The notes beneath the pieces were generated by a model that saw nothing but the letters and a program-made list of their open reading frames with translations, did no database searches and was not told the origin of the DNA. A stretch of 64,000 nt of DNA. Source: Urechis unicinctus. Lineage: Eukaryota > Annelida > Polychaeta > Xenopneusta > Urechidae. Below, one piece after another: positions 21,957 through 29,649 of this stretch (the first letter of the stretch is position 1; the number at the start of each line of letters is the position of its first letter). The DNA lies in NCBI GenBank assembly GCA_034190875.2, contig CM067350.1, positions 27,067,050 through 27,131,049 of the forward strand. Reading direction: 5' to 3'. A program made the translations under genes and the position numbers.

Positions 21957-23090
21957 ATGGAGCTCGTCTTGTTTCTTTCCATATTTGGCTTCGCAGTTCA
22001 TTGCGAAGCCGTCATACCTAATGGGAGAATACCTATTCCAGCTGAGTACCGACAGCCTTGTTCGATCTTTACCACGTGCGATCTGCGACAGGAGTACTGC
22101 GACCCAGGCGTGGACGTGTGCCGCAGATGTGACTACGACTGTCCCTCTAACGCTCTCGACAGTAGTTCAGACGAGAGGGCCTTCTGTCTGAAACATTGTC
22201 AAGGTAAATTTGTATGCGTCAAACATGTTTATATGCGTCTACAGTTGGAGTGATCACGTGCTGTATATATATATATCTGTTTATTGACAAATGTTTTGTG
22301 TTCTGTTACCAGTGTATTACGAGGTACAACGGGAACGTGATATCTCCACACATTCACAGCCGCTAGATGTCACCACTGTCTCATCGACTTCCAATAGAGA
22401 GGGAACATCTGGTAAGTCAGAACGCTGTCGCTTTCCACTCGGGATCAGAGGGTGCTTTTCAGGTTGAACCATTAGAACCAATCATTGCAACTATACCTCG
22501 TGTTCCCCGTGACCTTGTTTCAGTGGGTGAGGAGAGGACAGAGGGGGCGACTACAGACACCGTCTTCCCCAGAGCAGGTACTCAATCACTAGCCTCTTGT
22601 GAATGACACAGTCGAGTTTTTTTGTACGCGCTCGTGTCTGCATGCATTTGTGAAGTTTCTTAAGTCGATCCACGCTTCTTATTGGTGTGTATGTTCACGA
22701 CAGACACAAGCTCAGAGAGAGGCGGACAATTCCCGATGTATGCCGTCATCGGCAGCGTCTGTGGTGTTGTGTTGGCAGCGGCGGGGGTGTTTATCCTGAT
22801 ATACATGTGTAAAAGACGGACGACCAAGGGTAAGGATTCGCTACATCATATTCACCCGCTAATGAACTCAACTTATATGACGCAGCTAGATTCATTATTA
22901 TCCCGGAATGGGCTTAGCCACAAGGCGGGTGACAATAGGGTGAAGTGACTTGATGCTGTTTTGTTTAAAAGAGAGCAGGCGAGAAGTAGGGGAGGAGAGT
23001 GGCGAGGTAACGCGGGAACTGGTGTCCGAACGGGGGTATCCCATCACTACGACGACCCACGGCATCCTTCAGGAAGAGCATATCGTATAG
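21957..23090 (+). CDS. Gene 1: single-pass membrane receptor with a BCMA/TACI-like TNFR domain
   Basis: Five exons can be joined: 21957-22203, 22313-22411, 22524-22577, 22704-22829 and about 22990-23090, all in phase 1, giving about 208 residues. Residues 1-18 are a signal peptide. Residues 35-81 hold eight cysteines (35, 41, 48, 55, 58, 62, 77, 81), and the part CDLRQEYCDPGVDVC-RRC-x3-C resembles the BCMA/TACI module C-x4-[EQ]YxD..C-x2-C-x3-C. A Ser/Thr-rich stalk follows (83-140), then a membrane segment (145-169), then a basic stop (KRR) and a short tail. TNFR-type receptors bind TNF-family ligands at the cell surface; the role here is inferred. The start has a strong context (GTAATGG). 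The last acceptor is uncertain: 22972 also fits, and reading through the strong donor at 22830 would give a different tail ending at 22948. Gene 2 is a paralogue. Confidence 0.75.
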
Positions 23091-23461
23091 GCGTCACGTG
23101 ACTACGTATAACCGTCAACCACATCCTGTCCCTGTCCCTAGCGTGGCCAACGGTGTCCCTCCCACACAAAGCGGCGAAAGCCTTACCGGAAGTAAACTTC
23201 CTATGTCGACTGCTGGCGCCGCCAAGCGTGATGCAAGTATCTGACACTACTTGAGTCCCTTACAACGAAGGTTGTACACGAAGCTGGACCCTGGGTGGCT
23301 AACGCCGAGCGGACACGTCATCCTCCTACGTCGTCTGCTAGCGCCCCCTGGTCTAATGGTAGACCTCTTAGCAGCGGTGAACTATGTATCTCCTTACCAA
23401 TCTGCACTGCGTAATAACCTCATTATCGCATACGTCTAATGGTGTTTTTGTATCAGCGCTT

Positions 23462-23467
23462 AATAAA
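23462..23467 (+). promoter_or_regulatory. Candidate polyadenylation signal for gene 1
   Basis: AATAAA lies about 370 nt after the proposed gene 1 stop, followed by a T-rich tract on the plus strand. Confidence 0.45.
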
Positions 23468-23580
23468 AAGATAATACCTCTAGGTTCTGCGCATTATTGA
23501 CGCCTTACGATTGCAAAAAAAAAATTAAAAAATTTCAAAGATTGTGACCTGTATCGCGGATCAAAAAAAGGTTAACAAAC

Positions 23581-26490: not shown

Positions 26491-26491
26491 G

Positions 26492-29400
26492 CTAGGACAC
26501 ACTCCACACCTCGGTCTGGTCCCCGTCGACCATCGTTCCATGAGACATGCACGGGTCCGTCTCGCCGTCTGTGCGACTGGACGCGCTCGCCGAGTTCTCC
26601 CGCCTAATGACCTCGATGCTGCTCGGTAGGCTGTCATGAATATCCCTGGGCCGTATGGTCTGTAGGGGAACTTCCTCGGCGCCCGCTAAATCGCCCTGCT
26701 CCTGGGATATAATTCCACGACCGCTATGGTTAACTGTACACAAACAAATCATAACGAGACTCAACTTGTTATTACCAAGCTGTCACTGCAGTGGAGCAAG
26801 GCGAGTGCTGACCGTGAACTCACCCCCTGTATTGGCCTTGGTCCGACGGCGGTAACAGCAGACCGCGACCGCCACCAGGATGATGATGACGAGGGCTAGG
26901 ACGGAGCACACCGCTATCCAGACATGACCGGGCGTCTTGCTTCCGACCTCTTCTGGACACATTGATCGTGTGTCAATGTATAAGACAAAAAATACGGTAT
27001 GGTTTACAGATGAACGAAGCATGTAGCTGTGCTAGGAGAGGAACTCACCGGGGGTTGAGTGGGGTGAGGTGATGACAGGTGGAGTGGATGAAGTCACTGA
27101 CTGTTCGGTCAACCGGTAATATACTGCAGACAGAAAAAGACATGTCAGCCGGTTTTCACGAAACGCACCTGACACAGGTGTTCACACAGTAAATCACCAA
27201 ATGAAACATTTAGTCTTTAGACACTTGTCAATCTATAACGCTTCCGTTAAACCAACCTGGACGAGGTTGAATGCTGGTAAGTCGCGTTAAATTATCAATT
27301 CCACCTCGCTGTCTCTGCAGCGGGATGCTATGAGGTTTGAAAGTATTTGATACAAGTGATTTCGGAGTGACACGGAAATGTGCAGCTCAATGTAGTTGGG
27401 CATGTTAAAGGGAGTATGCGCTGACAATTGCTGCCTTCACATTCTCGCGTAGGCATCTTCGTTGTAGTGGGGACAAAGTTACTGACTTGACCGTTTACAC
27501 GCTCAATACCGAATCGACATCCGTGTTCGTCAGACCGTATCCTGCTCAACGACAATGACGAGCAGATTGTTATTAGCGAAGGGGGCCCCAGGGTACGGCT
27601 CGACCACGCGTCTCCTACTCAATGGATGGCACCAAGCCCCCACTTCCTCCGGGAGCTGATCACGCGTGTTGACCTTGCCTTTACCTTTGGTACATAAAGA
27701 TGGTTAGTGATCTCACAATCAAATACACATGGTCGTCAGTGATCAGCTGGTGATAACATACGATCGAGAGTACAGGATGTGGCAGACGCAGACCCAGTCC
27801 GGCTGGGGAGCTGACAACGTGTACCTTGTACAGCTCTACCTAGATGTCCGCCCCGAGCAGCCTCGCCAGGACGACCGTGCCCAGCGTACTCATGCTGTCC
27901 ATGACACACCAATCTGCCGCCTTGATATGGAGCTGTATTGTCGTTCATCGCGCTAATCATGTCTCAATGATCCAGGACGTGTCATGGGATTCCCCTTGTC
28001 GCTCTTACATCTGGTAACAGCAGTGGCAAGAGCGCGTGCGCGAGTTTAAGTGCCGGTCGGTATGATTGTGAAGATGCGACATCGTAAAACTCAAAATCAA
28101 GTGGATAACAGAGTGCCTTTATTGAGCGATAATGCATCTTAACACATCACACAATTGCGATATAAAGAGGATATAAAACAAAGACGTTGCAGATAAAAAT
28201 CTAACGTAATATGGACAAACTGGGAATATATATATATATATATATATATATATATATATATATATATATATATATATATATATATATATATATATATATA
28301 TATATATATATATATATATATATATATATATATATATCCACATAAACATAATAAAGCCAAAAAGGTCACTCTGACTAAACTAAAAAAGGTAAAAATACAG
28401 GTAGAGGGAGGGATGATGGGAGGGACAAAAAAACCCTGACTGGATATATTACGATATATCCCGACTCAAGCCCAATAGGCCCGGCAGAAGCAGATATTTT
28501 TCGAGTTGCCTACCCCGCCTAGTGACATGCAAACATAGATATCCTGTGACAAAAACTAAAAAGACGAGGCACACCGCGCACCCTTGATGGTCGTTTTACC
28601 GGCTTCAAGGAATAAGGAGATTTCGCTCAAACGGAACGAGTTGACGAATTTCTTACAAGTATGCGGAACTATACCAGTTATTCACCTCTACTGGCCCGGT
28701 AAAAAGACCTACACGTGGCCTGACTGCCTACGCTACTGGTAAGCGGCCTACTTGGCATCGTCGGTTCATAAAAAAACCCACTGCGCACGATTCACATATA
28801 AACCAGAGAAAGACATTAGCGATCGCCCGATTGCAAGTAGGTGAGGCCGTCGGACAAGTGAAGCTGCCATCTAGCGTGCCCGACGGGACAAGTCGTTTTT
28901 TATATTCTATTTTTTTTCTTCTGAAACGTAGCATATTAAGATCGATCGGCGATTCCTGGGAACATGCGCTCAGTTTACCGAGAAAGAAAATCCCAATCGT
29001 CCGTATGCGAGCTCAAGGTCTAAACTAAATGTGTGGCATGACTCGTCAACTCATTAGCGTGTGATCGGCGATTACCGGTAAATTCCGCGTTAATCTACCT
29101 TAGTCTATCACTGTTGAACCTCATCCATCAAATTAAATGTTCGACACCGAGGACAAAATTTCAGACTATGACAGGGCAAGCAAGTTTTTCGATCGGACAA
29201 GTAAAAATTAGGAGGACTTGCCCGACTGGACAAGTATTTCTCAGAGTTAGTGTTTCTCCCTGTAAACTGACATGAATAAAACTCTATCTGCTAAAGTGTA
29301 TGAGAGAGTTCTCGTCTTGAAACAAACATGTTGCCATGTTTAGACATACAGATATGGATCCGTGTAAATACACGTATCCATGTTTAGTCTCACGGCCGGG

Positions 29401-29649
29401 AGCTAACTTACCAGCGCACTCCTTGAGGCAGGTGGCTTGCTCCCCGGGATGATCGGCGATGACATCGGGGTGACAGTCGACAGCGCAGCTCTCACAATTC
29501 ATTACATCCTTCCTACAGTACTCGGTCCTCAGGTCGCACACGCTGAAGCGACTGCAACTCTCCTGGTAATGGTCAGGTACAGAAGCAGCCAGAGAGGTAG
29601 ATAAGAAGCTGGCAGAGAGCGAGATGAGTACCAGGAGAAAGGGCTCCAT
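26492..29649 (-). CDS. Gene 2: single-pass membrane receptor with a BCMA/TACI-like TNFR domain
   Basis: Four exons join in phase 1: 29649-29412, 27123-27049, 26952-26824 and 26733-26492, giving 227 residues. Residues 1-22 are a signal peptide; an in-frame upstream ATG at 29691 exists, but the start at 29649 (GAGATGG) places the hydrophobic core correctly. Cysteines 32, 38, 45, 52, 55, 59, 74 and 78 repeat the gene 1 spacing exactly. Exon 2 starts VYYR, as gene 1 exon 2 starts VYYE. The membrane segment is about 114-138, followed by YRRRTK. The tail of some 85 residues is longer than in gene 1 and contains PLQTIRPRD, loosely like TRAF-binding sequences but not an exact PxQxT. The gene faces gene 1 tail to tail, and intron 1 is about 2.3 kb. 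Ligand and signalling partner are unknown. Confidence 0.8.
27560..28040. other. GC-richer patch inside intron 1 of gene 2
   Basis: Both strands are open over about 27730-27960 (about 75 residues each). The plus frame ([14 protein letters not shown]) looks protein-like but has no recognised family; the minus frame could be an unlisted exon of gene 2. Nothing decides between these and chance. Confidence 0.25.
28228..28337 (+). repeat. TA microsatellite in intron 1 of gene 2
   Basis: About 55 uninterrupted TA units. Confidence 0.98.
28400..29270. other. Intronic sequence of gene 2 without other features
   Basis: Unique sequence with only short frames. The words gacaagtgaagctgcc and ggacaagtaaaaatta and similar phrases near 28855, 29190 and 29230 suggest a diverged local repeat, but no unit is clear. 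Confidence 0.4.

What the first reader, a model, noticed from the sequence alone, without database searches (positions are those of the whole stretch)
21957..29649. Convergent pair of BCMA/TACI-like TNFR genes with identical cysteine spacing
Both reconstructed proteins have one eight-cysteine domain with exactly the same gaps (6, 7, 7, 3, 4, 15, 4), the same exon boundary after the last cysteine, a second exon starting VYY[E/R], a membrane helix and a C-x-RR-like basic stop. The central part resembles the BCMA/TACI module, with an extra N-terminal cysteine pair. Single-domain TNFRs are known in invertebrates (Drosophila Wengen and Grindelwald), but this eight-cysteine version as a local inverted gene pair is not one I recognise. 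Sequence outside the cysteine frame has diverged strongly, as expected for fast-evolving receptors.
Basis: partly seen in the sequence, partly recalled or inferred. Interest (0 to 1): 0.8.

Follow-up and report, generated by a model that had tools for sequence, protein, structure and literature searches.

The report
Expanded Grindelwald-type TNF receptor family
The two facing genes encode small membrane receptors whose outer domain fits the fruit-fly TNF receptor Grindelwald better than the human receptors first suggested, and they belong to a large family in this animal that a standard domain database does not recognise.

Summary
Gene A (+, 21957-23090) and gene B (-, 29649-26492) each encode a signal peptide, one eight-cysteine domain (steps 6,7,7,3,4,15,4), a stalk, one membrane helix and a tail; internal joins are in phase 1. 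A relative of B, gene C, keeps the four-exon layout; B-C dN/dS in the domain is 0.235. Gene D lies on another contig.

BCMA/TACI is not the best fit. Drosophila Grindelwald (6zsy_A) has steps 5,7,7,3,4,12,4. A profile of 18 such domains from this genome ranks it first in the PDB (E 0.0028), BCMA second (E 0.093). A profile of A-D alone finds neither.

The family is large: one member finds 81 stretches at E<=1, 31 of them at E<=1e-3; A-D are linked to it by profile only (E 4.9e-10). In 63 fetched loci 35 distinct domains fit the frame. Pfam gave nothing significant for 23 domains scanned.

Ligand binding and signalling are inferred. No canonical TRAF motif was seen in the tails of A-C; predicted structures are too weak to decide.

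The parts
21957..22203 (+). gene A exon 1: signal peptide and the eight-cysteine domain, ends in phase 1
   Evidence: open frame and GT donor
22059..22199 (+). gene A eight-cysteine domain, C35 to C81 (steps 6,7,7,3,4,15,4)
22313..22411 (+). gene A exon 2, begins VYYE (stalk)
   Evidence: splice sites and phase
22524..22577 (+). gene A exon 3, short stalk exon without counterpart in B
   Evidence: splice sites and phase only
22704..22829 (+). gene A exon 4, membrane helix and CKRR
   Evidence: splice sites and phase
22972..23090 (+). gene A exon 5, cytoplasmic tail and stop; acceptor choice uncertain
   Evidence: one of two AG choices keeps this frame to a TAG; not confirmed
29412..29649 (-). 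gene B exon 1: signal peptide and the eight-cysteine domain
   Evidence: copied in C
29416..29556 (-). gene B eight-cysteine domain (steps 6,7,7,3,4,15,4)
27049..27123 (-). gene B exon 2, begins VYYR (stalk)
   Evidence: matched in C at 68%
26824..26952 (-). gene B exon 3, membrane helix and CCYRRR
   Evidence: matched in C at 66%
26492..26733 (-). gene B exon 4, cytoplasmic tail and stop
   Evidence: matched in C at 58%

Best explanation
A and B are two members of a large family of type I, single-pass receptors whose ectodomain is one (sometimes two or more) Grindelwald-type cysteine-rich domain: an N-terminal X2 beta-hairpin with four cysteines followed by a C2 module with four. They most likely work like Grindelwald, BCMA or Fn14: one small domain per chain sits on a trimeric TNF-family ligand, three chains are gathered, and the clustered tails pass the signal on. 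Shown here: the cysteine frame, the gene models by splice signals and by a relative with the same exons, the constraint on the domain, the profile link to Grindelwald and to the wider family, and TNF-domain stretches in the same genome. Inferred: disulfide pairing, TNF as ligand, and what the tail recruits.
For: Cysteine steps of A, B, C (6,7,7,3,4,15,4) and D (6,7,7,3,4,13,4) against Grindelwald 5,7,7,3,4,12,4. All four window-type domains have E-Y-C where Grindelwald has E-F-C; its Phe46 packs between the two modules (PMC8024323, passages). hhalign of A-D with Grindelwald E 1.1e-4. A profile of 19 other domains of the genome, without A-D, ranks Grindelwald first in the PDB, E 9.7e-4, then TACI 0.85 and BCMA 0.92; a second profile of 18, holding A, B and D but without the loci that the Grindelwald query itself had found, ranks it first again, E 0.0028, then BCMA 0.093. 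A-D against the 19: E 4.9e-10. Grindelwald as query finds gene L009 at 45% identity, E 0.0026. Domain under constraint between B and C, dN/dS 0.235. Five TNF-domain stretches over the Pfam cut-off, all at C11:28.06-28.19 Mb.
Confidence: 0.75

Rival explanations
1. A and B are BCMA/TACI-type receptors for a BAFF/APRIL-like ligand, with one added disulfide.
For: The last five cysteines share BCMA's 3,4,x,4 layout, and the distance from the residue after E-Y to the next cysteine is the same. BCMA and TACI rank next after Grindelwald in the family profile searches.
Against: Eight cysteines, not six; the third cysteine stands where BCMA and TACI have an aromatic residue. The Asp-x-Leu type hairpin tip (motif from PMC8024323) is not seen in A-D. 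BCMA and TACI score lower than Grindelwald in each comparison made. Pfam TACI-CRD2 reached only E 0.48, in 1 of 23 domains.
Confidence: 0.08
2. The domain is an unrelated secreted-type cysteine module that reached the same frame by convergence; the receptors bind something other than TNF ligands.
For: Small cysteine-rich domains converge easily; direct similarity to Grindelwald is mostly the cysteine frame (5 of 60 cysteine-fixed shuffles as high). No TRAF motif or death domain in A and B. Structure prediction does not settle the fold.
Against: Grindelwald ranks first, and BCMA or TACI next, among 177635 distinct PDB sequences with two family profiles. L009 is 45% identical to Grindelwald over the domain.
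Confidence: 0.14
3. The genes are decayed or unexpressed copies, or decoys with no signalling role.
For: Short tails without recognised motifs; no transcript evidence could be obtained.
Against: Intact frames and splice sites; C keeps the exon layout and the domain is constrained (dN/dS 0.235; whole aligned set 0.47). A membrane-held decoy is not excluded.
Confidence: 0.08

Closest known systems
Drosophila Grindelwald (PDB 6ZSY, 6ZSZ, 6ZT0)
   Same: Eight cysteines; same inner steps 7,7,3,4 and last step 4; E-[FY]-C at the third cysteine; type I, single domain, one membrane helix.
   Different: First step 6 instead of 5 and C6-C7 step 15 (13 in D) instead of 12; many copies here; its Egr-contact residues named in PMC8024323 (Thr51, His66, Asn67) are not evidently kept in A or B; no Traf2 motif seen in the tails of A-C.
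BCMA and TACI (second domain)
   Same: Single small domain; spacing of the last five cysteines resembles theirs.
   Different: Six cysteines, aromatic residue in place of the third cysteine, and an Asp-x-Leu type hairpin tip that A-D lack.
BAFF-R and Fn14
   Same: Single-domain receptors; according to PMC8024323 (passages) BAFF-R has an X2 module and Fn14 a C2 module.
   Different: BAFF-R has four cysteines and Fn14 six; profile comparison with A-D is at chance (E 0.39 and 0.06).
Canonical TNFR_c6 receptors (PF00020)
   Same: Cysteine-rich ectodomain receptors; present in the same genome (8 stretches at E<=0.001).
   Different: Different cysteine frame; Pfam does not assign A or B to it.

Membership tests
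Grindelwald-type X2-C2 receptor domain | Eight cysteines with inner steps 7,7,3,4 and last step 4 | tested here: met
Grindelwald-type X2-C2 receptor domain | Sequence profile similarity above other known domains | tested here: met
   Top PDB hit for two family profiles, E 9.7e-4 and 0.0028; but not for the profile of A-D alone
Grindelwald-type X2-C2 receptor domain | Aromatic residue packing between the modules, just before the third cysteine (Phe46) | tested here: met
   Tyr in all four of A-D; identity of position by alignment, packing not tested
Grindelwald-type X2-C2 receptor domain | Disulfide pairing: two intercalated in X2, nested in C2; helix-loop-helix C2 | tested here: inconclusive
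   AlphaFold2 from four sequences, pTM 0.48 and 0.51; one C-terminal helix in A, none in D; Foldseek and VIA-align weak
Grindelwald-type X2-C2 receptor domain | Type I, single membrane helix | tested here: met
   A, B, C full models and a membrane exon in D
Grindelwald-type X2-C2 receptor domain | Traf2-binding motif in the tail | tested here: not met
   Three TRAF consensus patterns (recalled) absent from tails of A, B, C and the known part of D
TNF receptor by function | Binds a trimeric TNF-family ligand | not testable with these tools
   Ligand-domain stretches exist in the genome
BCMA/TACI | Six-cysteine frame with aromatic residue before Asp in the hairpin | tested here: not met
BCMA/TACI | Asp-x-Leu type motif at the hairpin tip | tested here: not met
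   Hairpin tips of A-D read; motif from PMC8024323
TNFR_c6 (PF00020) | Pfam match | tested here: not met
   A and B; 23 family domains

The most novel reading that the evidence does not exclude
In this animal the X2-C2 (Grindelwald) domain, described from a fly as a one-off combination, is the base of a large, unannotated receptor family: at least 35 distinct domain sequences in the loci read, in clusters on several chromosomes, many as single-exon receptors and some with tandem domains, beside 8 canonical TNFR_c6 stretches and 5 TNF-domain stretches found by the same kind of search. It would be a second, parallel class of TNF receptors that sequence databases miss.
Probability: 0.5. Interest if true: 0.78.

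Novelty: new variant of a known kind. Interest (0 to 1): 0.62.

Why it matters
The X2-C2 combination was reported as the first of its kind in Grindelwald (PMC8024323, passages), and Grindelwald homologues are said to escape sequence-based annotation (PMC9646898, passages). A large family of them in one genome would mean that TNF receptor counts in such animals are too low, and that single-domain receptors, rather than the many-domain type, may carry much of the TNF traffic there. The tandem forms would show how many-domain receptors can grow from a single X2-C2 unit.

Tried and rejected
BCMA/TACI orthology: rejected as best label. PDB search with A-D alone: only chance matches. Pfam on the spliced proteins: no TNFR family; A had one match over its cut-off, Alpha_GJ (E 1.2e-4, residues 103-180, stalk and membrane part), taken as compositional. 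Egg lysin as a taxon marker: no match, but the control was silent too, so uninformative; the organism is not identified. Rfam and tRNA scans of the window: nothing. A recent-duplicate origin of the A-B pair: rejected at 40% identity. A tree of 27 short domains: mostly unresolved; Grindelwald with L009 90/92, A with B and C 88/90, neither reaching the tool's mark of strong support. Canonical TRAF motifs: absent in A-C, present once each in the L040, L048 and L055 tails of the 18 tails or tail versions scanned. Literature: Grindelwald with TNFR and mollusc gave 2 papers, with lophotrochozoa 0, with oyster, receptor and TNF 0; of the two found I saw passages only. Not answered because the machines were busy: a second family count with another member, a mollusc marker family, and the fold search of the D model.
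Full report
WHERE. The species was not identified.

GENES. Gene A (+) has exons 21957-22203, 22313-22411, 22524-22577, 22704-22829 and 22972-23090. Gene B (-) has exons 29649-29412, 27123-27049, 26952-26824 and 26733-26492. Introns are GT-AG and internal joins are in phase 1; the spliced frames are open from ATG to stop. Exon 1 of each carries the signal peptide and the whole eight-cysteine domain and ends one codon after the last cysteine. 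The last exon of A has two possible acceptors in different frames; I used the one that ends in TAG at 23090, and this is not confirmed. Between the genes lie simple repeats and a stretch with a weak match to a reverse-transcriptase RNase H domain (24452-25012, under Pfam's cut-off).

COPIES. Gene A's exon 1 finds four places in the genome at E<=0.001: A, B, C (C9:79.44 Mb) and D (C6:40.81 Mb). C has counterparts of B's four exons in order. B against C: dN/dS 0.275 for exon 1, 0.235 for the domain, 0.875 for the membrane exon, 0.525 for the tail exon, 0.47 for exons 1, 3 and 4 together; exon 2 was left out. D has a phase-1 exon with a membrane helix about 1.8 kb after exon 1. A-B, A-C and A-D identities over the mature exon-1 part are 40, 35 and 46%.

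WHAT THE DOMAIN IS. The paper on Drosophila Grindelwald (PMC8024323; passages, section 8 part 1) describes eight cysteines, an X2 hairpin and a C2 module, and calls this pairing a first. I recovered the PDB chain by probe. Its steps are 5,7,7,3,4,12,4; A, B and C have 6,7,7,3,4,15,4; D has 6,7,7,3,4,13,4. The residue before the third cysteine is Phe in Grindelwald and Tyr in A-D. hhalign of the A-D alignment gives E 1.1e-4 for Grindelwald, 0.0052 BCMA, 0.0061 TACI, 0.06 Fn14, 0.39 BAFF-R. As a control, 5 of 60 shuffles of Grindelwald with cysteines kept in place scored as high and 0 of 60 full shuffles did, so the frame carries most of this signal. A profile of A-D alone finds no TNF receptor in the PDB at E<=10.

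THE WIDER FAMILY. Grindelwald's domain as query in the window's own genome gave five stretches at E<=10. The best, L009 (C12:2.16 Mb, 45% identity, E 0.0026), is one open frame with signal peptide, domain (steps 5,7,8,3,4,8,4) and membrane helix. Two others, L011 and L013 (E 2.1 and 4.1), carry two such domains in tandem; the other two (L010, L012) do not show the frame. None was A-D. One L013 domain as query gave 81 stretches at E<=1 out of 113 candidates scored, 31 of them at E<=1e-3, in clusters on C15, C4, C11, C12, C7, C2, C17 and C1; none lies on C9, so A-D were not among them. In the 63 loci read, 35 distinct domain sequences fit the frame, A-D and L009 included. Of 31 distinct open frames listed, 21 also hold a strongly hydrophobic 19-residue stretch after the domain (mean hydropathy above 2), as expected of single-exon type I receptors, and 3 hold two domains by the pattern. 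hhalign of A-D against 19 of the other domains gives E 4.9e-10, probability 96.6. That 19-domain profile ranks Grindelwald first in the PDB at E 9.7e-4, then TACI 0.85 and BCMA 0.92. Because L011 and L013 had come in through the Grindelwald query, I repeated this with 18 domains without L009, L011 and L013 but with A, B and D: Grindelwald again first, E 0.0028, then BCMA from 0.093. A trace of circularity remains, since the other loci were found with an L013 domain. Pfam gave no significant family for any of 23 domains. The same genome has 8 PF00020 stretches at E<=0.001, with 150 of 179 candidates scored, and 5 PF00229 stretches, all at C11:28.06-28.19 Mb; such exon-by-exon counts are lower bounds.

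MECHANISM. Most likely each chain binds a TNF trimer through its single domain and signals on clustering, as Grindelwald does with Eiger (PMC8024323). The binding and the tail's partner are inferred. Tails of A, B, C and the known part of D have none of three TRAF patterns, which I recalled.

LITERATURE. PMC9646898 (passages) says that Grindelwald homologues from many species remain uncharacterised by sequence tools. Searches for Grindelwald with TNFR and mollusc, with lophotrochozoa, and with oyster, receptor and TNF gave 2, 0 and 0 papers; the two are broad TNF-superfamily papers of which I saw passages. As the species is unknown, these searches do not cover every possible group.

VERDICT. 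Observation confirmed; label changed from BCMA/TACI to Grindelwald-type; the pair is a small part of a large family. The domain assignment is well supported, the function inferred.

Noticed in passing
L009 (C12:2162025), L011 (C2:52.15 Mb), L013 and L014 (C4:4.89 Mb), L016 (C15:17.08 Mb): Further Grindelwald-type genes: one 45% identical to the fly domain, others with two domains in tandem; L016 also has repeats that lack the third cysteine.
   Followed up: partly
window 21251-21745 and 25147-25835: A stretch upstream of gene A, including a TATA-like box, is repeated between A and B (86% over 343 and 83% over 120 bases); a repeat element or a copied promoter.
   Followed up: partly
tails in L031, L033, L040, L048, L055: Several single-exon relatives share a DSG motif near the tail end (DSGYET in L048, DSGTCS in L055), like the recalled phosphodegron pattern DSGxxS.
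   Followed up: no
C11:28061826-28188411: Five TNF-domain stretches lie within about 130 kb, a ligand cluster.
   Followed up: no
window 32056-32376 (-): Immunoglobulin-like exon (PF00047 over its cut-off).
   Followed up: no
window 41532-41855 (+): Thrombospondin type 1 exon (PF00090, E 9.2e-10).
   Followed up: no
window 6587-6991 (+) and 11035-11454 (-): Two inverted open frames with nearly the same protein sequence over their second half; no Pfam match for the first, the only one scanned.
   Followed up: no
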